The notes under the pieces are model-generated. The model ran no database searches. It was not told the origin of the DNA and worked only from the letters and a program-made list of their open reading frames with translations. Below, in pieces: positions 10,632 to 20,137 of a DNA stretch of 20,676 nucleotides (position 1 is its first letter; the number at the start of each line of letters is the position of its first letter). The stretch lies in IMG/VR virus record IMGVR_UViG_3300042900_000687, positions 1 to 20,676 of that record. The stretch is one strand, 5' to 3'. The DNA is from a virus. Made by a program: the position numbers and the translations under genes.

Positions 10632-11185
10632 GGTTGAGAGCAAGTTGTCAAAGTTGGTTCAGCCGGAAGTTTTTTGGCGTAGACGATAAACACGTCTGGG
10701 CAGTCTCCCTGCTGGTCAATGCGGTAGATGGTCATGGCTTGTCTATCTATCCAGTCGCATATCTTGCGATGAGTTGCGTCACCGTGTGTCTCGATTGCGA
10801 CTGCTTCAAGGCTGGGCAACGCACTTTCAATGGCGGCCAAGTGCTCCTCGGCCCCCTCTATATCGCTTTTAATATGGGTAATCGAGTGAGCTGTGATCCA
10901 GTCACAGATCTGGGCTGGGCTATCTATTGACGCTTCTAAAAAATGAGCGCCTAGCTCATGAGTTAGCAGCGCGATGTCCGCGTTGTTTTGATCAATGCCG
11001 AGGTAAAATGCAGGCTTCTGTCCTAGGTAAAAGTATGGCGTGCCAAGACGATCCGCCCGTAGTGGCTCGTCCCAAAAAGCACAGCCCAGATCTAGGACTC
11101 TGCTTTGACTGTCCACGGGCATGTGCGCCCAGTGGATCGACGGGTTCTCGTCGCATACCCTGCCGCGCTCTATATTACTATCCAT
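10628..11185 (-). CDS. FkbM-type SAM-dependent methyltransferase
   Basis: A 185-residue class I methyltransferase. Motif I is V-L-D-L-G-C at residues 30-35 (SAM binding), followed by an acidic residue in G-I-D-Q (D65). The I-K-S-D-I-E-G-A-E block at 105-113 is the hallmark of FkbM-type methyltransferases (usually I-K-x-D-x-E-G-A-E). These enzymes typically O-methylate sugars or polyketide hydroxyls. The ATG at 11183-11185 gives a 16-base overlap with the glycosyltransferase; the frame extends to 11260, but those residues are basic and lie inside the upstream gene. It is the last gene of the sugar cassette, so it may cap a glycan built by the two transferases. The substrate is not known. Confidence 0.8.
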   Translation of the reverse strand: MDSNIERGRVCDENPSIHWAHMPVDSQSRVLDLGCAFWDEPLRADRLGTPYFYLGQKPAFYLGIDQNNADIALLTHELGAHFLEASIDSPAQICDWITAHSITHIKSDIEGAEEHLAAIESALPSLEAVAIETHGDATHRKICDWIDRQAMTIYRIDQQGDCPDVFIVYAKKLPAEPTLTTCSQP

Positions 11186-11844
11186 CGTGTTTTCTTTTCT
11201 TGTGCTGTGGCCACGCGGGTGGCGTGATGATTTTCTTGGTGAAATTCTGCGCTCGGACAAAAGGCGCCCCGCGTTGCCCCTATGTTTTGGATGCGACTAA
11301 CTCGCGGATATAGTTCCCCCATGGCCAGCTCGGATCGAATGCGCTGAACGCCTCCGTCCCAAAAAGAGTTATCCCACCTAGGCGCCAAATACTTTTCCCA
11401 ATGGCTACGCCAAGTGGCCCAGCCCCACGGGGTGAACCACTTTCTAAAACTTGCCATCTCCGGCTCTGCTTCTCCGCCGTGCTGATTGTAGGCGCTGATG
11501 GTCAGAGTCATCGGTGACGCCCAGTTTGCCGCCCACTCAAACCAGCGCAGGCAGTCTTGGCTTGGCACGGTATCGTCCTCTAGGTGCACATGAAAATCGC
11601 TGTTACGAAATCCCGTTTCCATGCAGTAGCGGATCGTCGCCCCGCAGCCCATGTGCTCAACCGGGCTAAGCGTGGTGAGGCCCATTTGCTTGGCAATTTC
11701 TACAAGCTCGTCGGTTTTATCTGAACGATCTAACACGCAGACGATGTCGTACTCGCCTACGCCGTCGCAGGCTGAAAGCGCTCCCAGGGTTTGCGTAAAG
11801 TAGTCAGGCCGATTATAGCCCGACACGGTCAGAGTTTTGTTCAC
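11170..11844 (-). CDS. GT-A fold glycosyltransferase (GT2-like)
   Basis: A 224-residue glycosyltransferase-like protein. The N-terminus (T-L-T-V-S-G-Y-N-R-P-D-Y-F at 4-16) is the first strand and loop of a GT-A nucleotide-sugar site. H-L-E-D-D at 87-91 is the metal-binding DxD-type motif. A W-G-W-A-T-W segment at 140-145 and P-R-V-S-R-I-Q-N-I-G-A at 180-190 are features I know from family 2-like transferases acting on surface sugars. It starts at GTG in a GTGA overlap with the large glycosyltransferase and overlaps the methyltransferase by 16 bases. No membrane segment is present, so a cytoplasmic enzyme acting on a virion protein or a lipid-linked or free sugar is likely. Donor and acceptor are unknown. 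Confidence 0.8.
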   Translation of the reverse strand: MNKTLTVSGYNRPDYFTQTLGALSACDGVGEYDIVCVLDRSDKTDELVEIAKQMGLTTLSPVEHMGCGATIRYCMETGFRNSDFHVHLEDDTVPSQDCLRWFEWAANWASPMTLTISAYNQHGGEAEPEMASFRKWFTPWGWATWRSHWEKYLAPRWDNSFWDGGVQRIRSELAMGELYPRVSRIQNIGATRGAFCPSAEFHQENHHATRVATAQEKKTRWIVI

Positions 11845-13982
11845 CCCTTTAAAAGCGCATAGGCCGCTAGGTTGCCGCCGGTGCCTTTATTATTTTGCAG
11901 GGCATCTTCGCCTAGCCCCTCCGGCCTAATGCGCAGGCCGTTAGTACGGTTTAGATCTGGCGTGTTGCAGACTAGAGTTGCGATGCCGTTAGCCCGCAAG
12001 GCGTGACTCATAACAAAATCGTCCGCCATAAAACTGGCACGCTCTTTAGGGCTAAGCGCGACAAACTGCTTAGCGGTCATCGCTGGCCACAGCTCTGCCT
12101 TGGGCATGTCTTGTCGTCGGCAAGTCACCCCTGCAAATCCTTCAAGAATCTCGGCCGCGCCGAGATGGTCTGGGGCGATGGCATAGCCAGTCTTGCCCGT
12201 CATAAAGAATCCGCAGATGCCTAGCGCCGTCTTTGTTTTGTTTTTTAGCTCGTCGGCGAGCACCTGCAAAAGTGTGGGGCCGTAAAGAATGTCGTCGTCT
12301 AGCCAGACCAGCTGCGCTTCGGGATCGGCCTCCGATTCCATCAGCCCGACAAACTTGGTGGCCGGGCCGTAATCTTGTGTCCTGTGAATTTCTAATTTAC
12401 CAGAATCAGCCAGCGCTTGTAGCTCTTTAGGTATATCGCCAAAGCGTTCCCCAGTCCGTGCCAGCTTATCAGGCACCGACAAAATAATCCGATCTGCCGG
12501 GCGGTTTTGGCGCAGCAGACTTTGAATTGTCGGAAGTACCTTATGGATTCGGGTGGGAGTAGTGGTGAGTCCCACCACTACTTTGCCCACCCTATCGACT
12601 GGGCTAGGCAGTAAAACGGCGGCGGCTGGAACAGTCCCGGCAGATAGCAGATCCACGTCCCAGCGCAGCGGCGGGCAGATTGTATCTGCCGCACATTTCA
12701 CAAAGAGTACGATGCCACCCAGCGCTTTTGCGGTGGCTTCCTCCGCATCTTTCACAATGTGTATGCGTTTGCCGGCAATCTCAGTACCAGGGTCGGTTAT
12801 AAATAAAGCCTGTATGGCTGCTGGATTGTCCGAGGTATCGATAAAGAATTTATGCAATCTAAAGCAATCCATAAATGGCCCGTTAAAGACCATGGTGATT
12901 TGCCCCCAGTTTTGGCGGAAAGATTCACGCACGCAGCGATCGGCGTCTGCGGTTTGGCCGACGGCCCGCAAGCACTGTTCGATAAGCATTTTGGGCAGGT
13001 GTCCGTACCACTTGGCGTCCAAGTTCCAGATCACGCCCTGCGGCCTGGGCAACATTTCCACTAGGTTTAAAAGTCTGACGGCTTCGCTAAAATTACCCTC
13101 ATCGATAAGCACGGTGGCCAGATGGCCGTAAGCCTCTCGGCGAGTCGGGCAAAGTGTAATTCCCCTGCCCAAGTATTTCCGTTTCTTTACATGATCGGCG
13201 CACATAACCCCTGCCATACAGAAAAGCTGGTAGCGTTCGGTTTCGCCTAGGTCTGGATGCTCTAGCCCTAAAAGAGTAGGGCCGATCGATTCCTGATATG
13301 CCCCGCGCAGATATCCCTCTTGGGCTAAGTAGTACAGATTCATCCCTGTATGCTGTAAGAGAGTGCCGAGGATGCGCTTGTTGCGTTCGCTGCTGTTTTT
13401 CTTGCAGGTGTTCGGGGCGTGAATGACTACGAGGTGATCCGCCAATCCCACCGCCATGTTGGGCACCGGCTTTACCCTTTCGTGTACCGCTCGTTCCCAG
13501 ATGGCGGGCAAGCTGCCGTCAGGTTGGCGCCGGAAAATTCTTTCTCTGCGATTGTCCCGCATTCCGCTGTTCTGCACGTCGTACCGGGTTACAAGGATCT
13601 CCCAGCCCTTCTCCTGCGCCTCCCGCTGTTCGACTGCGTCCCGGTGTAGCTTCGCCTGCCCTGGGTCAAGCAAGTCGTCAGAATCAAACCAGACAACATA
13701 TTTACCTGTCGCCAGGCTAAAGGCTTTGTTGCGAGCGGCAGCAAAATGATCGATGTGGGGCCAGTCGGCGTTTTCGGGTGCGTTCAGATACTCTCCCCAG
13801 ACCAAAGCCTCGCCAGCGGCCTCCTGTGCGCAAATACGCACACCCTGCGCATCATTTTTACCGCAAGCCGACACGCAGACGACTTCGTCCCATAGGCCGG
13901 CGGTGCACTTAATTAAACGGGCAACTAGCTCCCCTTCGTTGGGGCCGACGATAATAGCTAGGGAGACAAGGGGGGTATTCAT
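11841..13982 (-). CDS. large protein with two glycosyltransferase-like domains
   Basis: 713 residues when started at the ATG at 13980-13982. An upstream in-frame start at 14028-14030 would place 16 odd codons through a terminator-like hairpin, so it is rejected. The N-terminal domain (about 1-190) is GT2-like: L-V-S-L-A-I-I-V-G-P-N-E, then W-F-D-S-D-D-L at about 98-104 with the DxD motif. The middle (about 195-390) is helical and repeat-like, probably TPR-like. The C-terminal domain (about 465-713) is a second GT-A domain: V-G-L-T-T-T-P-T-R-I near 471-480, Y-G-P-A-T-K-F near 538-544, and W-L-D-D-D-I near 560-565. Later motifs G-F-A-G-V and A-D-D-F-V support it. It is the first gene of the cassette behind the capsid gene. 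No Shine-Dalgarno site is visible. Confidence 0.8.
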   Translation of the reverse strand: MNTPLVSLAIIVGPNEGELVARLIKCTAGLWDEVVCVSACGKNDAQGVRICAQEAAGEALVWGEYLNAPENADWPHIDHFAAARNKAFSLATGKYVVWFDSDDLLDPGQAKLHRDAVEQREAQEKGWEILVTRYDVQNSGMRDNRRERIFRRQPDGSLPAIWERAVHERVKPVPNMAVGLADHLVVIHAPNTCKKNSSERNKRILGTLLQHTGMNLYYLAQEGYLRGAYQESIGPTLLGLEHPDLGETERYQLFCMAGVMCADHVKKRKYLGRGITLCPTRREAYGHLATVLIDEGNFSEAVRLLNLVEMLPRPQGVIWNLDAKWYGHLPKMLIEQCLRAVGQTADADRCVRESFRQNWGQITMVFNGPFMDCFRLHKFFIDTSDNPAAIQALFITDPGTEIAGKRIHIVKDAEEATAKALGGIVLFVKCAADTICPPLRWDVDLLSAGTVPAAAVLLPSPVDRVGKVVVGLTTTPTRIHKVLPTIQSLLRQNRPADRIILSVPDKLARTGERFGDIPKELQALADSGKLEIHRTQDYGPATKFVGLMESEADPEAQLVWLDDDILYGPTLLQVLADELKNKTKTALGICGFFMTGKTGYAIAPDHLGAAEILEGFAGVTCRRQDMPKAELWPAMTAKQFVALSPKERASFMADDFVMSHALRANGIATLVCNTPDLNRTNGLRIRPEGLGEDALQNNKGTGGNLAAYALLKG

Positions 13983-14000
13983 ATTTTTTAGGTTGGGAAA

Positions 14001-14028
14001 GCCCGGTGCACCCCCCGATGCACCGGGC
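14001..14028 (-). terminator. terminator-like hairpin after the major capsid gene
   Basis: A perfect 10-base inverted repeat, gcccggtgca (14001-14010) and tgcaccgggc (14019-14028), with an 8-base loop. On the minus strand the stem is followed by TTTCCC, so the U-run is short and termination is probably partial. It lies 20 bases after the capsid stop and 18 bases before the glycosyltransferase ATG. Since tail genes follow on the same strand with no obvious new promoter, it may reduce rather than stop transcription after the highest-copy gene. Confidence 0.65.
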
Positions 14029-14048
14029 AACCCAGATGATTCTCTAAC

Positions 14049-14924
14049 TTAGACCAAGCGAACCAGTGAGGCTGTCGATCCACGGCCACAGCCGTAGAGC
14101 AAGATGTAGGAACGGTTACGGGTTCCGAGGGTCGGGTTGTAGAACTCGCGCATTTGCAAGCTCAGGCCAGACACGGGTTCCGTGACGTTTTCTACGCTGC
14201 CAGGGTAATCGCTGGGCACTTCGGGCAGACGGGCCGCCACGAGAAGCGCTTCCTGTTGGGCCGCGAAGCCTTTGCTGATCGCGGAAGGGAGCGAAGGATA
14301 ACTGAACACTTCGATGCCGTTCACGATTCCAACTGAGCCGGTGCGGATTGCGTCACCTTGGATCTGGGCGTTCGCCACGATCGAGGAGTCGTTGAGCAAG
14401 CTGGCTTTGTTGTTCGGGCTAACAATTGCGTAGCGGCTGGCGCTAGGCACTTTGTTGCTATCCAGCGTTACACCCATCGAAACGATGGAGCGGTAGCTGA
14501 GAACGTCCGCCGCCACGGTCATCGTGGAGGTGTAGGACGCGGCGCTGATCGTGCCGAGCAAGGTGTCGACCATCTGTTTGCCCAAGGCGTGTGCGGCCGA
14601 GGCGGCAAAGCGCTCGATCAAGTTGATCGAGGAGCTAGCTGCTTCTTCGTCATTGATTGCCACAGTGCTATGAACAAGGTTGTTCAAGGTCACGATGCAA
14701 TCCGTCTGCGTGCGGTCACCCGCGACGTAGCCGGCTGTGGTGCTGTAGCCTACGGCAGTCGCCGCAGTTACTAGATGAGTGGTGATGATGTCGCCTTTAC
14801 GAGCGGAGGCGTCACTGAAGTCCGAGTAAGCGGACGTTAGGAAAGGGAATTGCTCAACCAGCAACGCGAGCGCGCGCTGAGAAACAATTTTCCCATTTGA
14901 TACTGATGCTAATGTGTTTGCCAT
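14049..14924 (-). CDS. major capsid protein (HK97 fold, P22-coat-like type)
   Basis: A 291-residue protein with the pattern of a phage major coat protein: a helical N-arm (about 10-40), then G-Y-V-A-G-D-R-T with following beta strands, then a long helix (about 95-125, E-E-A-A-S-S-S-I-N-L-I-E-R-F-A). The C-terminal part contains F-A-A-Q-Q-E-A-L-L-V-A-A-R, recalling the coat domain turn before the last strands in P22-type coats. It follows the protease/scaffold gene, as expected. AGAAGGA lies 7 bases before its ATG, among the better ribosome binding sites in the window, consistent with high copy number. A strong hairpin follows its stop. Capsid assignment is firm on order and pattern; the precise subfamily is less sure. 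Confidence 0.85.
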   Translation of the reverse strand: MANTLASVSNGKIVSQRALALLVEQFPFLTSAYSDFSDASARKGDIITTHLVTAATAVGYSTTAGYVAGDRTQTDCIVTLNNLVHSTVAINDEEAASSSINLIERFAASAAHALGKQMVDTLLGTISAASYTSTMTVAADVLSYRSIVSMGVTLDSNKVPSASRYAIVSPNNKASLLNDSSIVANAQIQGDAIRTGSVGIVNGIEVFSYPSLPSAISKGFAAQQEALLVAARLPEVPSDYPGSVENVTEPVSGLSLQMREFYNPTLGTRNRSYILLYGCGRGSTASLVRLV

Positions 14925-14945: not shown

Positions 14946-15836
14946 TTATCGTGCGAGCGTGTTTAGTTTTTGATAAATCGCGGCCGCACGACCGGGATTT
15001 TTTTCCTCGTTGAATTGCTTCAGCAACTCAGCGCGGGAAAGCACTGGGGCCACCACTTCAAGGGGTTTCGTCCCCTTGCTGGCTTCTAAATCAATTTTGA
15101 GACGGGCAAGCTCGTTGTTTAAGGCAACGATCTTGGAGTTCTCGGAAAGTTCGGCAGCAACTTCGGCCGCGACTTCTGGGGCGGCTTCGGTTACAGCGGG
15201 TTCAGCGGCTACGGGAGCTTCCTCGACCACGGCTTCAAACTTGGCGGCAAATTTGCCGACGAGTTCGTCGATGCGGGCGGAGAGAGCGGCGATGGCCAGC
15301 TCGGCATTAAACGCCGGGGCCGCCGGTGCTGCGGGCGCGGTTTCGATAACCGGCGCTGATTCCTTTACAGTTGTATCCATATTAAGCGTTTTGAGTGTGT
15401 CAACCCGCGCAGAGTAAACGCCAGTAGGATTGGCCGCGGGTGTGGTCACGAGGTCGACCGAGTAAAGAGTGTTAACGTCGGCCAGCTGCGTGCCATCCTC
15501 AGCCACACGCGGAACGCCAGAGAAACTGATCGAAAAACCAATCTGTCCTGGCAGGGTGCTTAGCAACTCGCTAAAATAGGCAAAGCCATCATGGCTTTCC
15601 AGTAGGGTCAGATCCGCACGGACACGGCCGCCGTCCAAGCTAAAGTTCTCTAAGTATCCGATAATGTTAGAAACGCTAGAGCTGTGATCGGAGAGTACCT
15701 TAATTTGCCCCAGCTCATTACCGGCCCGGACAACTTGCTCTAGGGTGTCGGCGTCGATAGTCATGCCGTGGCCTAAAGCGGGGCCAGCGGTGATAACGGA
15801 AATTCCCTTAAATAATTTTGTTGAAGCCATGCCCAC
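14946..15836 (-). CDS. prohead protease fused to scaffold domain
   Basis: A 296-residue protein with two parts. Residues 1-145 look like a prohead protease of the herpesvirus-assemblin-like serine type. S-D-H-S at 49-52 offers the catalytic His51, G-F-S-I-S-F at 100-105 offers Ser102, and S-V-D-L-V-T-T-P-A at 126-134 is the block before the usual PA motif, with Asp128 a possible third residue. Residues about 160-260 are Ala/Pro/Glu-rich and helical, typical of a scaffold, and the C-terminal 35 residues form the likely coat-binding helix. The start could be GTG at 15834-15836 or ATG at 15828-15830; the first is used here, and neither has a Shine-Dalgarno site. The start lies in a hairpin. It precedes the capsid gene as expected. 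Confidence 0.8.
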   Translation of the reverse strand: MGMASTKLFKGISVITAGPALGHGMTIDADTLEQVVRAGNELGQIKVLSDHSSSVSNIIGYLENFSLDGGRVRADLTLLESHDGFAYFSELLSTLPGQIGFSISFSGVPRVAEDGTQLADVNTLYSVDLVTTPAANPTGVYSARVDTLKTLNMDTTVKESAPVIETAPAAPAAPAFNAELAIAALSARIDELVGKFAAKFEAVVEEAPVAAEPAVTEAAPEVAAEVAAELSENSKIVALNNELARLKIDLEASKGTKPLEVVAPVLSRAELLKQFNEEKNPGRAAAIYQKLNTLAR

Positions 15837-15843
15837 GCATGGC
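15826..15843 (-). promoter_or_regulatory. perfect hairpin enclosing the protease/scaffold start codon
   Basis: gccatgc (15826-15832) pairs with gcatggc (15837-15843), leaving a 4-base loop. On the transcript the loop is GTGG, so the GTG start is exposed in the loop while the alternative in-frame ATG is buried in the stem. An out-of-frame ATG in the other arm would give only a ten-codon peptide. It may control start choice or protein level. The repeat is short, so its role is unproven. Confidence 0.45.
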
Positions 15844-15851
15844 GTGTCAAA

Positions 15852-16367
15852 TTAGTTGCGTGAGCTTACGGGGCTGGGAAAGTATGGCTGATAAGTGACC
15901 GGCGTTCCGCCTGATGGTGGTGGAGTTTGATTGCTATTAATGGCAGCCATAATTGCGTTAGATAGCTCAACGGCATACTGCTTTGTTTTCATGGTGAGCG
16001 TGTGGTTGTTCATGCCGCCAAACTGAAGGGATACATACCAATCATAAGTAAGCGTTTTCTTAATAACGTACAAACCAAAGACTGTAAATATACCACCAGC
16101 GATGTAGCTGCGTGTGCAAAAAAATGTCGTGGCAAGAATCGCAGCTATAAAGAAAAGCAACATCCCAAAAAACGTGAGAACGCCATCTTCTTTTTGATAG
16201 TAAGAAACCCCAATTACTTGAGGCACGGAGAAGGCCTGATTATGCGGAGCGCCAATCGCGATCATTTTTTGCGTCACACGGATTGTACCGTCATCATAAA
16301 AAACAGCCTCTGCGGGTTCTTCGTTTGGCGTTAGGTCAGGCTGGTCAAACTGTATCCTGCTGCTCAC
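15852..16367 (-). CDS. small two-helix membrane protein in the head operon
   Basis: A 171-residue protein. The N-terminal domain (about 20-58) includes F-Y-D-D-G-T-I-R-V-T and I-G-V-S-Y-Y, beta-strand-like. Two transmembrane helices follow at about 63-83 and 87-103. After them come V-S-L-Q-F-G-G-M and a Pro-rich soluble tail (about 148-168). The layout recalls bacterial DUF6232-type proteins, but I am not certain of that family. It is not a normal part of a lambda-like head cluster. The DNA is A+T-rich (69 G+C in 180 bases at 16021-16200 by hand count), unlike its neighbours. The start is GTG at 16365-16367 and a hairpin lies just upstream. A moron that alters the host envelope or a membrane-bound assembly factor are both possible. 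Confidence 0.65.
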   Translation of the reverse strand: MSSRIQFDQPDLTPNEEPAEAVFYDDGTIRVTQKMIAIGAPHNQAFSVPQVIGVSYYQKEDGVLTFFGMLLFFIAAILATTFFCTRSYIAGGIFTVFGLYVIKKTLTYDWYVSLQFGGMNNHTLTMKTKQYAVELSNAIMAAINSNQTPPPSGGTPVTYQPYFPSPVSSRN

Positions 16368-16371
16368 TTCC

Positions 16372-16398
16372 TAAGCCTGCTCCTATGCGGCAGGCTTA
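16372..16398 (-). promoter_or_regulatory. hairpin before the membrane protein gene, AGGAG at loop
   Basis: taagcctgc (16372-16380) pairs perfectly with gcaggctta (16390-16398) around a 9-base loop. On the transcript the loop end and next stem base form AGGAG (16380-16384), 12 bases before the GTG start, and a second AGGA sits too close to the start to be useful. No U-run follows, so this is a weak terminator at best. It could be a translational control element or a processing site between portal and membrane protein genes. Confidence 0.5.
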
Positions 16399-16403
16399 AT
16401 CAA

Positions 16404-18044
16404 CTACTTTCTCTTTTTGGGTTTTGCCTTCGGCCGGTATTTACCAATGCCTAAAGCAGAGACGACCATGTCCTGCTCGGCTTTGGTCAGCTTAAAGTCA
16501 GCATCGTCGCGCATAGTAAAAGTATCAGTGGTAGGGGCGGGTGCAGGTGCAGTCTCCGGCTCGGCCATGGTTAGGTGCACGGTCGCCTCCCCTGCCTCTA
16601 GTGCTGGGGTGACGGTGGCGTCTTGGGCCGGCGGTATACTCGGCGGAGTTACAGCTGCGGTTGGCGCTGGCGAGTTAGTAAAAATCTGCACTGCGGTGGT
16701 ATCGATTCCGGCGGCTTCACATTGCGTTTTTATATAAATAGATTCGGCAATTTTCTGGTTTACAGCGGTTTGCCAGTCTTGGCCTTTTGAGGCGTAAATT
16801 TGGGCCATTGAGGTCAGGCCCATCTTCAAATCTTCTCGGTCAGCTGCAGAATCCCGACCGGCGTCTATGGTCGCTTTTGCTGGCGTGTGATACTCGGCCG
16901 CCCACCACATCGTCATTCCCCTGGGTGGCGTCAGCTCACCGCGTTTAATCGCTTTGGCCAGCGCCCACTTTCTGATCCTTGAAATAAATTGCGTTACCAC
17001 TGTCTGTGCCACCTCATCAAACCGGCGCTGTGCTTGGCCCAGAATAAGGCGGGTGTTAGGCCCGCTCAGTGTGGATGGATCCCACATCATCGCATACGGC
17101 AGGCCGAGGGTTTGCGCGATGGCCTTTAGGTACTGATCCATGTGGGTCTGCAGATTTTGGCTAGGCCGATCGTTTTTAATTTCTCGCAATACTTTCCCCA
17201 TCGGCACATTTAGCAACGCACCGCCGCCAAAGATTTTGTCAGTGGTTAAGTTGTAGTCGTCTGTTTCGGTCGGGTTAAAAAAGCCGGGGCCGCTGTTGGT
17301 GGTAGACTCTAAAGCTAGCCCAATCTGCCCAGCTCTTTTTAGCGCAAGCATTTCTGTCTCAAGAATTTCCGATCTATCTAGGCAAGTGTTAATGCAAGAT
17401 GCCAGCTTGCTAATCGATCGCACCTCATCAGCCCGATCGCGTTCTGCCAGCAAGATCAAATCATTTGCCTGCACCTCAGTAAATTTCTCGCCGTCGTTAC
17501 CCGTGCGAATGTAGTAGCTAAGCGGCCTGCCGTTTTTGTTCAGTCGCACTCCGTCAAAAATGTTTGTCTCTGTGCCTAGGTAAGTTGGCGTTTCGCAGCG
17601 GTGCCCTTCAACCAACTGAATCAGCGGATAGCCGTCACCGTTATCAGTTAGCAGCGCAAAGATTTCGTTATCCCGTAACATAGTGCGGGTGGCCACCTGC
17701 TGCATGGTGTTCCAATCCAAAATTCCCCTTACGTCGCAGCTGCCGCTCCACATATCAAACCACGCTTCGGCGTCTGTGTTCCATGCTTCGTCACTGGTAC
17801 GGGATTGCGCTTTAATGCCGGAGCCAATCGTGTTGCGGGTGATAGTGTCGATTGCGCCGCGAATGGTCGGATCGTTATAGCAAAGCCAGCGGGCTAGCGA
17901 TGATATCGCCTGCCGTGATGCGGCGCTAACGTCCAGCCGTGTATCGCCCAGCTGTGCTTCGACAAACCGACGCTTACGAGTGTCGGGGCCGACCGCTCGG
18001 ATCATGCGGCTCCAAGTCGTGATAATCTTTGAACCTAGGCCCAT
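16404..18044 (-). CDS. portal protein (lambda gpB family)
   Basis: A 546-residue portal protein of the lambda group: L-A-R-W-L-C-Y-N-D-P-T-I-R-G-A at about 50-64, then N-T-I-G-S-G-I-K at 71-78, and W-N-T-M-Q-Q at about 110-115. The Q-N-L-Q-T-H-M-D-Q-Y-L-K segment precedes L-G-L-P-Y-A-M-M-W, the typical wing/crown part near 300-330. Twelve copies form the ring at one capsid vertex through which DNA passes and to which terminase and connectors bind. Residues about 455-510 are a Pro/Ala/Thr-rich linker and the tail K-Y-R-P-K-A-K-P-K-K-R-K is strongly basic. Length is close to lambda gpB (533). The ATG lies one base after the preceding stop and no Shine-Dalgarno site is visible, suggesting coupled translation. 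Confidence 0.92.
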   Translation of the reverse strand: MGLGSKIITTWSRMIRAVGPDTRKRRFVEAQLGDTRLDVSAASRQAISSLARWLCYNDPTIRGAIDTITRNTIGSGIKAQSRTSDEAWNTDAEAWFDMWSGSCDVRGILDWNTMQQVATRTMLRDNEIFALLTDNGDGYPLIQLVEGHRCETPTYLGTETNIFDGVRLNKNGRPLSYYIRTGNDGEKFTEVQANDLILLAERDRADEVRSISKLASCINTCLDRSEILETEMLALKRAGQIGLALESTTNSGPGFFNPTETDDYNLTTDKIFGGGALLNVPMGKVLREIKNDRPSQNLQTHMDQYLKAIAQTLGLPYAMMWDPSTLSGPNTRLILGQAQRRFDEVAQTVVTQFISRIRKWALAKAIKRGELTPPRGMTMWWAAEYHTPAKATIDAGRDSAADREDLKMGLTSMAQIYASKGQDWQTAVNQKIAESIYIKTQCEAAGIDTTAVQIFTNSPAPTAAVTPPSIPPAQDATVTPALEAGEATVHLTMAEPETAPAPAPTTDTFTMRDDADFKLTKAEQDMVVSALGIGKYRPKAKPKKRK

Positions 18045-18397: not shown

Positions 18398-20137
18398 TCA
18401 CGCCTTCGCCTCTGGGGCCATAGCTGCCTCGGCTTGAATTACTTTACCCCATACCGCCAGCCCAGCTAGGTAGGTTTCGCAGTCGTATAAGTGATCTTGT
18501 CTGCCCTTAATTCTAATCCACTCATAAAGATCTTTGCCCGTTTTGCGGTTAATGCGGTGGGCCTTTCTGTGGCTGGCCATGTGCTCGCGGTATTCAGGGC
18601 TAACGTCGTGCGCCACTTCCCACATCGGCCCCTGCCCTCGGCGTAACCACGCCAGCAAATCCTGACACGACGGAGAGCTTAAGAGGAGCAGGCGGCATCC
18701 TGCGTCGGTCGGTTGGTCGGAGCTGTGCACGCTTTTCATTCGACCGCCCACGCCTTCAATATAGAAAAACTGCCGCTCCTCTCCCTTAATGGCTACCCAG
18801 CCGTAACGTGCTGCAATCCTGTAGGTGTCTTGCGTTTCGTAGCCAGAGTCAATGCAGGTATGGATATTTTTTACGCCAAGCTCTTGCAAAGATTGGGCGA
18901 TATCCTCAATCGTTCGGCGTCTGCCTTCCTCAATCAAACGGCTCGATCCATCCCTGGCAAACGCTCTGACGACAAACCAGAACTCGTCGATCTGCCTATC
19001 GATTGCGGCTAGCTTAATGTGATCGGTTTCCCAAGCCTGCTTCTTGCCAAACGCCCCCGGCGGTATGTTTGTTAAATCGTCGTCATCAAATTGATCTTCC
19101 CACGGCATCGCACTCCATCCGTTAACCCACCCCTGCAACCCGTGCAGATAATGTTTTTCTGTAAGAAACTTTTTTGCACAATCCGCAAAAGTAATCGTGG
19201 GGCTGTACCAGCTGGGCAGTCGAAAAGAGCGCCGGCCCGTTTCCGCGCTGTTGTTCGCCGCCACCCACTTGCCCTGCTCGATCGCCTTGCGCCGGTGACT
19301 TTCCGTCCACTTGGCGTCGCACTTCGGGCAGTAGTAAGCGGCCGTTTCGGAGACTCGCTTCATGTCCCACTTACCGTCCTCGGCTCTTGCCGTTTCGTCC
19401 CAGCGGATCTGGCCAAACTCCATCGCCTGAAAGTCGCCGCAGGAATGGCACGGCACGTGGTAGGTTTCTTGGCTGCCAGCCTGATAGTTTATCCAGATGT
19501 CGCCGGTGTTCAGCGTCGGCGTGCTCGTCAGCACGTGCTTGCGTTGCGGAAACGCCTTGGTGCGCTCTAAGGCTAGCGAGTAAGCGGCCGCATCTTTTTC
19601 AGATGGCGCAGCAAAAGAATCCAGCTCATCCAAAACGGCTAAGCAAATCGGGCGTGAGGAAAGATTGGCCGGGCTGTTTGATCCCACCAAAGAAAGCGTC
19701 ATGGTCGCAAACTGCATCTCGAGAATCTTTAGGTCGTCCATGTCCTGCGGGAATAGTTGCTTAACCGGCCTGCACTTCTCAAATATCGGAGTTAGTCGCG
19801 TCTCGCTATAAGAGCGGGCTAAGTCTGCGTTAGGCATAACTAGCAGCGCTGGCGCTGGGTCGTTCGCAATTCGGTAGGCCAACCAAACTGCTAGCGTAAG
19901 CGTCTTGCCAGTTTGCGATCCCCAGCAAAGCGTAACGGTGTGAACGCCCGGATCGGCCAGCGCTTCTAGTACGCCGCGCACGTATGGCGTCCAGGTCGTG
20001 CTGTAAAGTCCGGGGCGAGCAGTCAGCCGGCTATCGAGTTGGATGTTGCGCTCTGCCCACTGAATCACCCCTGGCGGCTTCTCGTAGTGCCAGCGCTGTC
20101 GTGCTCGGCGTCGCAGCTCGGTCTGCGCCTTTGTCAC
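18398..20137 (-). CDS. terminase large subunit (GpA family)
   Basis: A 579-residue packaging motor of the phage lambda gpA type. The Walker A motif is G-S-Q-T-G-K-T at 73-79, Walker B is A-V-L-D-E-L-D at 167-173, and the coupling motif is L-T-S-T-P-T at 203-208. Two Cys pairs, C-H-S-C at 230-233 and C-P-K-C at 270-273, look like a zinc site usual in GpA proteins. The nuclease domain has acidic residues in A-A-I-D (D380), T-C-I-D (D430) and D-H-L-Y-D (548-552). It hydrolyses ATP to drive DNA into the prohead and cuts the concatemer. The GTG start overlaps the small subunit stop (GTGA) and has GAGG 7 bases upstream. GpA terminases often use cos-type ends, but the end sites are not in view. Confidence 0.95.
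   Translation of the reverse strand: MTKAQTELRRRARQRWHYEKPPGVIQWAERNIQLDSRLTARPGLYSTTWTPYVRGVLEALADPGVHTVTLCWGSQTGKTLTLAVWLAYRIANDPAPALLVMPNADLARSYSETRLTPIFEKCRPVKQLFPQDMDDLKILEMQFATMTLSLVGSNSPANLSSRPICLAVLDELDSFAAPSEKDAAAYSLALERTKAFPQRKHVLTSTPTLNTGDIWINYQAGSQETYHVPCHSCGDFQAMEFGQIRWDETARAEDGKWDMKRVSETAAYYCPKCDAKWTESHRRKAIEQGKWVAANNSAETGRRSFRLPSWYSPTITFADCAKKFLTEKHYLHGLQGWVNGWSAMPWEDQFDDDDLTNIPPGAFGKKQAWETDHIKLAAIDRQIDEFWFVVRAFARDGSSRLIEEGRRRTIEDIAQSLQELGVKNIHTCIDSGYETQDTYRIAARYGWVAIKGEERQFFYIEGVGGRMKSVHSSDQPTDAGCRLLLLSSPSCQDLLAWLRRGQGPMWEVAHDVSPEYREHMASHRKAHRINRKTGKDLYEWIRIKGRQDHLYDCETYLAGLAVWGKVIQAEAAMAPEAKA

What the first reader, a model, noticed from the sequence alone, without database searches (positions are those of the whole stretch)
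15852..16367. A+T-rich membrane protein gene inside the head gene cluster
A two-helix membrane protein between portal and protease has no counterpart in the lambda head plan. Hand count gives 69 G+C of 180 bases at 16021-16200, against 34 of 60 in a portal stretch (17041-17100) and 38 of 60 in the scaffold region (15181-15240). With its own upstream hairpin, it looks like a later insertion (moron). Possible roles are superinfection exclusion, envelope alteration or a membrane-linked assembly step.
Basis: partly seen in the sequence, partly recalled or inferred. Interest (0 to 1): 0.6.

Follow-up and report, generated by a model that had tools for sequence, protein, structure and literature searches.

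The report
Swappable membrane-gene slot in phage head operon
Between two conserved capsid genes, this uncultured phage and its close relatives carry one of several unrelated, interchangeable small genes for membrane or exported proteins, most likely ways of altering the host envelope or shutting out rival phages.

Summary
The 171-aa ORF (15852-16367, minus) is real: found in nine related contigs, dN/dS about 0.13-0.2, lowest G+C (45.7%) of 22 genes measured. Its model is a PH-like domain split by a two-helix membrane hairpin. It matches DUF6232 full length, but below Pfam's cut-off.

The insertion reading is strongly supported, and the real object is larger. The portal/protease junction is an exchange slot. 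Among about 80 relatives it holds this protein (A), a 1-TM protein (B), a signal-peptide protein (C), C+B, a tiny lipoprotein (F), a deletion scar, or nothing (19 distant relatives and two named phages). The nearest relatives (portal 99%) carry B or C. Conversely, A is 94% identical where the portal is only 66%. Every occupant is predicted membrane-bound or exported. A, B and C are flanked by the same two hairpins, one after the portal stop and one at the protease start.

So the hairpin belongs to the slot, not to this gene. No promoter or terminator stands out. Best function: superinfection exclusion or other envelope alteration, probably co-expressed with late genes; this is inferred. An assembly role is unlikely. 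New variant of a known kind (moron-like slot).

The parts
15852..16367 (-). Slot occupant A: 171-aa two-helix membrane protein, PH-like domain split by the helix pair, DUF6232-like
16372..16398 (-). H1 hairpin between portal stop and occupant start; carries the SD-like GGAG/CAGG; shared by A-, B- and C-carrying relatives
15826..15851 (-). H2 element TTTGACACGCCATGCGTGGGCATGGC between occupant stop and protease; hairpin holding the protease ATG (15828-15830)
16404..18044 (-). Portal gene, upstream border of the slot
   Evidence: Phage_portal_2, E=8e-47; PHROG portal
14946..15830 (-). Protease/scaffold gene, downstream border of the slot (conserved ATG at 15830; the ORF list begins at an upstream GTG, 15836)
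   Evidence: (E=0.0044, weak)
14049..14924 (-). Major head protein gene
   Evidence: PHROG major head protein, E=1.9e-25

Best explanation
The gene is the present occupant of a one-gene exchange slot at the portal/protease junction of a clade of uncultured phages related to Verrucomicrobia phages. Occupants replace one another by recombination, probably in the conserved flanks (H1 and the portal tail on one side, H2 and the protease start on the other). They encode unrelated proteins that all appear to act in or across the cell envelope. Occupant A is probably an inner-membrane protein with both ends and its split PH-like domain in the cytoplasm. It is read from the head-operon mRNA, and its start follows a hairpin that can cover the Shine-Dalgarno-like sequence. 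Most likely it makes the infected cell resist DNA entry by related phages (superinfection exclusion) or otherwise alters the envelope. Shown: slot, exchange, shared flanks, purifying selection. Predicted from models: fold and membrane helices. Inferred: topology, recombination route, translation control, late expression, exclusion.
For: Slot survey: A 10, B 41, C 8, C+B 1, F 2, deletion scar 1, empty 19 (F and scar read from the sequences). Portal tree: at least 19 label changes, at least 6 for A and 5 for C forced by starred branches. Identity steps at the borders: WIN vs L006 portal 96, H1 94, gene 22, protease 94-98%; WIN vs L061 portal 54-69, gene 94, protease 74-80%. A, B, C mean G+C 45.6, 44.4, 45.9% against 55.1% in the portal. 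All occupants carry a membrane helix, signal peptide or lipobox. Replaced while head proteins stay 96-99% identical. Integrase-like gene and a separate lysis region in relatives. Known exclusion proteins are small membrane proteins or lipoproteins that block DNA entry (PMC10883804).
Against: No exclusion assay exists and no occupant matches a known exclusion family. No own promoter was found, so expression from a silent prophage, usual for exclusion genes, is not supported. Cassette type does not follow tape measure type (neutral).
Confidence: 0.42

Rival explanations
1. The slot carries assorted host-interaction genes with no common exclusion role, such as counter-defence against membrane-acting host systems or lysogenic-conversion factors. 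A would bind a host protein at the membrane through its cytosolic PH-like domain.
For: Occupants are unrelated in sequence. DUF6232-like proteins also occur as bacterial chromosomal genes. Bacterial PH-like domains are thought to bind proteins (PMC2817789).
Against: A shared envelope location is more uniform than assorted functions would predict. No PADLOC match.
Confidence: 0.28
2. Occupants tune lysis (holin, antiholin or spanin accessory) late in infection.
For: Late-operon position; B has one membrane helix and A two; F is related to a small lipoprotein beside the lysis genes of other phages of the group (57% over 38 aa, E=0.001).
Against: A separate region has a VanY-type endolysin, small membrane ORFs and lipoproteins. 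C looks fully exported. L012 and 19 relatives have no occupant.
Confidence: 0.15
3. The occupant is a membrane-linked head assembly or packaging factor.
For: Position between portal and protease.
Against: Swapped for unrelated genes, deleted or absent while portal, protease and head protein stay 96-99% identical.
Confidence: 0.06
4. The ORF is a chance or decayed frame in A+T-rich DNA.
For: GTG start; a 110-aa antisense ORF overlaps it (16002-16334).
Against: 171 aa in every complete copy, dN/dS 0.13-0.20, PH-like model.
Confidence: 0.01

Closest known systems
Phage morons / regions of genomic plasticity (lambdoid and Pseudomonas Mu-like phages; PMC4378225)
   Same: Single extra genes of deviating G+C between two genes adjacent in relatives, present in some and absent in others, also within head modules.
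   Different: No promoter or terminator found here. One site with several unrelated occupants that share an envelope location. Conserved flanking hairpins, whereas that paper saw no common flanking sequence and calls the mechanism of acquisition mysterious.
Membrane superinfection-exclusion proteins (P22 SieA, HK97 gp15, TP-J34 Ltp, Tuc2009 Sie2009; PMC10883804)
   Same: Small phage-encoded membrane or lipid-anchored proteins; SieA is about 160 aa and in the inner membrane; gp15 is described as a moron (title cited).
   Different: No family match; PH-like fold; within the head operon without a visible promoter; exclusion untested.
DUF6232 (PF19744)
   Same: Aligned over the whole profile (1-117/117); strands, helix pair, strands, helix in both; profile-profile E=3.3e-6 with bacterial DUF6232-like proteins.
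   Different: Below the gathering score (19.9; best relative 26.0; cut-off 27.4). Extra conserved proline-rich tail (PPPSGG..YQPYFP.PV.SRN). Phage head-operon context.
Bacterial PH-like domains (PHb, PF08000, DUF1200, DUF2244; PMC2817789)
   Same: PH-like fold, in several families tied to membrane helices and predicted to be intracellular; also reported in phages.
   Different: In DUF2244 the helices precede the domain; in the model here they are inserted between strands 5 and 6.

Membership tests
Phage moron | Extra gene between two genes that are adjacent in relatives | tested here: met
   19 relatives with 4-34 bp junctions, and P8625 and Moulinsart without a gene there
Phage moron | Base composition unlike its neighbours | tested here: met
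   45.7% vs 53.6% (portal) and 54.8% (protease); the same for classes B and C
Phage moron | Own promoter and terminator | tested here: inconclusive
   None above shuffles, none on the minus strand just upstream; sigma-70 consensus only, host promoters unknown
DUF6232 (PF19744) | Score at or above Pfam's gathering cut-off | tested here: not met
   19.9 bits; best relative 26.0; cut-off 27.4. Hence called DUF6232-like, not a member
DUF6232 (PF19744) | Full-length profile match and profile kinship | tested here: met
   1-117/117; hhalign E=3.3e-6, probability 87.8
PH-like fold | Seven strands capped by a C-terminal helix | tested here: met
   Predicted model only, pLDDT 69.5; top 50 re-aligned PDB rows Z 9.9-11.5, PH/PTB/FERM-type. 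Plain Foldseek E >= 0.2
Superinfection-exclusion protein | Located in the cell envelope | tested here: inconclusive
   Two membrane helices predicted; location not measured
Superinfection-exclusion protein | Expression alone blocks entry of related phages | not testable with these tools
   Needs an infection assay
Head assembly protein | Kept together with portal and protease | tested here: not met
   Replaced or absent with head proteins 96-99% identical

The most novel reading that the evidence does not exclude
The portal/protease junction is a dedicated exchange site, kept by two conserved hairpins that serve both as recombination anchors and as translation control. Through it a phage population swaps unrelated envelope proteins like alleles, and these set which of the near-identical phages can superinfect which.
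Probability: 0.22. Interest if true: 0.75.

Novelty: new variant of a known kind. Interest (0 to 1): 0.52.

Why it matters
How extra genes arrive between conserved phage genes has been called mysterious (PMC4378225). This site shows many exchanges, empty sites, a deletion scar, a tandem double and conserved flanks, so the route can be studied directly. The fact that every occupant looks membrane-bound or exported points to selection on the envelope of the infected cell. It also gives a phage setting to a DUF6232-like protein and a split PH-like fold.

Tried and rejected
Chance ORF: rejected by purifying selection. H1 as terminator, or an own promoter: nothing above shuffles. Known RNA family: no Rfam match in the window. 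NCBIfam or PADLOC family: none. Named phages carrying the protein: none. Prophage by portal alignment in bacterial genomes: none, so the host is only inferred. Link of cassette type to tape measure type: none seen, few A-carriers. Slot as the lysis module: unlikely, a separate lysis region exists. Structure of C: helical bundle, best Z 7.7, uninformative. Foldseek with A against PDB and BFVD: no E <= 0.001. The automatic H2 fold picked wrong start codons in many loci; only correctly placed segments are used.

Full report
Observation. The window is a 20,676-base virus record. Its genes run on the minus strand: terminase small and large subunits, a small gene, a lambda-type portal, the ORF in question, a protease/scaffold gene, the major head protein, glycosyltransferase-like genes, then connector and tail genes. 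The ORF lies at 15852-16367, with 171 codons and a GTG start. At 45.7% G+C the gene is the lowest of the 22 measured, and 2.4% of equal-sized windows are as low. Its GC3 (0.47) is also low, though the protease's is lower (0.44). The gene is under purifying selection: dN/dS 0.13 to 0.20 in the comparisons where dS could be computed.

The slot. Scans of IMG/VR with the ORF, the portal and a portal alignment gave about 80 relatives. The space between portal and protease was read in each. Ten records, the window included, hold this protein (A). Forty-one hold a 60-85 aa protein with one hydrophobic helix and the motif PVFVFQISN (B). Eight hold a 142-146 aa protein with an N-terminal signal peptide (C); one of these is cut by the contig end. 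L019 holds a shorter C-type gene (135 aa) followed by B. L079 and L080 hold a 44-aa lipoprotein-like ORF (F; MIRVFLAALLLAGCQKP...), too short for the ORF cut-off and read by eye. L012 keeps only H1, the last codons of B and H2: a deletion scar. Nineteen more distant relatives (portal 55-58%) have no occupant, the two genes lying 4-34 bp apart. Two relatives were cut off before the slot. The closest named phages, Verrucomicrobia phage P8625 and Akkermansia phage Moulinsart, have no gene there either. The simplest reading is that the insertion is derived in part of the group. Some loci are near-copies, so these counts are not independent events.

Exchange. The window's nearest portal relatives are L007 (C) and L006, L008 and L009 (B), at about 99% portal identity. 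Against L006, nucleotide identity is 96% in the portal end, 94% in H1, 22% in the gene and 94-98% in the protease. Against L061 it is 54-69% in the portal, 94% in the gene and 74-80% in the protease. Against L005 it is 85-96%, 76% and 94-99%. On a portal protein tree the slot labels need at least 19 changes, with at least 6 for A and 5 for C forced by well-supported branches. That tree is a quick one, and recombination inside the portal could inflate the number. Genes of classes A, B and C average 45.6, 44.4 and 45.9% G+C, against 55.1% for the portal ends. None of the cassette genes occurs elsewhere in these loci. The F type is related to a small lipoprotein beside the lysis genes of other phages of the group (57% over 38 aa, E=0.001), and in the L080 record the only match lies in the slot. 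This suggests relocation of an envelope gene into the slot.

Flanks. After the portal stop, A-, B- and C-carriers share an element H1, TAGTTG...GCCTGC-loop-TAGGAGCAGGCTT in its commonest form. The occupant usually starts 32-36 nt after the portal stop. H1 folds as a hairpin with a variable loop: mean z is -2.3 over 51 distinct sequences and about -3 in the commonest type. A second type can pair GGCTCCC with GGGAGC but does not stand out by z. H1 holds the SD-like GGAG and CAGG. The commonest form occurs once in each of 28 IMG/VR contigs; by contig name these are all relatives already found through the portal. Before the protease lies H2, TTTGACACGCCATGCGNGGGCATGGC, whose hairpin holds the protease ATG; its first part is kept even in some relatives without a slot. 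Relatives with empty sites lack H1. In the window, L006, L007 and L013 the same H1 loop goes with three different cassettes, which puts exchange points between the H1 loop and the start codon. I infer homologous recombination in these flanks; breakpoints were not mapped statistically. No promoter or terminator near the gene exceeds chance, so the hairpin is no evidence of an autonomous transcription unit.

The protein. Pfam DUF6232 matches over its full length but under the cut-off (19.9 bits, E=0.001; relatives up to 26.0 against 27.4). Profile comparison with DUF6232-like proteins of bacterial genomes supports kinship (E=3.3e-6, probability 87.8). Those genomes come from a phylum reached through a contig labelled Akkermansia. 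The AlphaFold2 model (7 sequences, mean pLDDT 69.5) has five strands, a helix pair at 62-84 and 88-106, two strands and a helix: a PH-like domain split by a membrane hairpin. Re-alignment to PDB candidates gave PH, PTB, FERM and similar domains throughout the top 50, Z 9.9-11.5, although plain Foldseek E-values were weak. I place both ends in the cytoplasm from the charges around the helices, which is an inference. Membrane-anchored bacterial PH-like domains are predicted to be intracellular and to bind proteins (PMC2817789). No paper in the library names DUF6232.

Function. What unites the occupants is location: two membrane helices (A), one (B), a signal peptide (C), a lipobox (F). These are predictions from sequence and models. 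Relatives carry an integrase-like gene (PF00589, 26.9 bits against a cut-off of 27.1) and a separate lysis region with a VanY-type endolysin, so the group looks temperate and the slot is not needed for lysis. Known exclusion proteins are small membrane proteins or lipoproteins that block DNA entry (PMC10883804). Exclusion or another envelope change is therefore the best single reading (0.42). Other host-interaction roles (0.28) and lysis tuning (0.15) remain open. An assembly role (0.06) is unlikely because the occupant changes or vanishes while head proteins stay 96-99% identical. The apparent late co-expression argues against exclusion by a lysogen. Tape measure similarity does not follow cassette type, which is neutral.

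Host. Among named phages the head protein matches only Verrucomicrobia phage P8625 (29%), and no prophage was found with the portal alignment. A verrucomicrobial host is a reasonable inference, not a result.

Verdict. The finding is real and its insertion reading is right. The larger object is an exchange slot for envelope proteins in a head operon: a new variant of the moron theme, with conserved flanks.

Noticed in passing
window 11170-14030, minus strand: Two genes after the major head protein have glycosyltransferase-like counterparts in relative L144 (Glycos_transf_2, GNT-I-like). They are conserved in relatives; their role inside a head cluster is unclear.
   Followed up: partly
window 18398-20137 and relatives: Terminase large subunit is 82-90% identical in relatives whose portal is only 57-66% identical, yet about 30% in others: strong mosaicism at the terminase/portal border.
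   Followed up: partly
window 15826-15851: The protease start codon lies in the 3' arm of a near-invariant hairpin (H2). No SD-like sequence is evident just upstream; possible translation control of the protease.
   Followed up: partly
L146 8815-8946; L080 slot: A small lipoprotein beside the lysis genes is related to the slot occupant F of L080 (57% over 38 aa).
   Followed up: partly
window 16002-16334, plus strand: A 110-aa antisense ORF overlaps the gene and stays open in L003; it was not tested for function and is probably a shadow frame.
   Followed up: no
L012 3951-4071: A deletion removed most of cassette B but left H1, the last codons and H2: a natural occupant-minus phage.
   Followed up: yes
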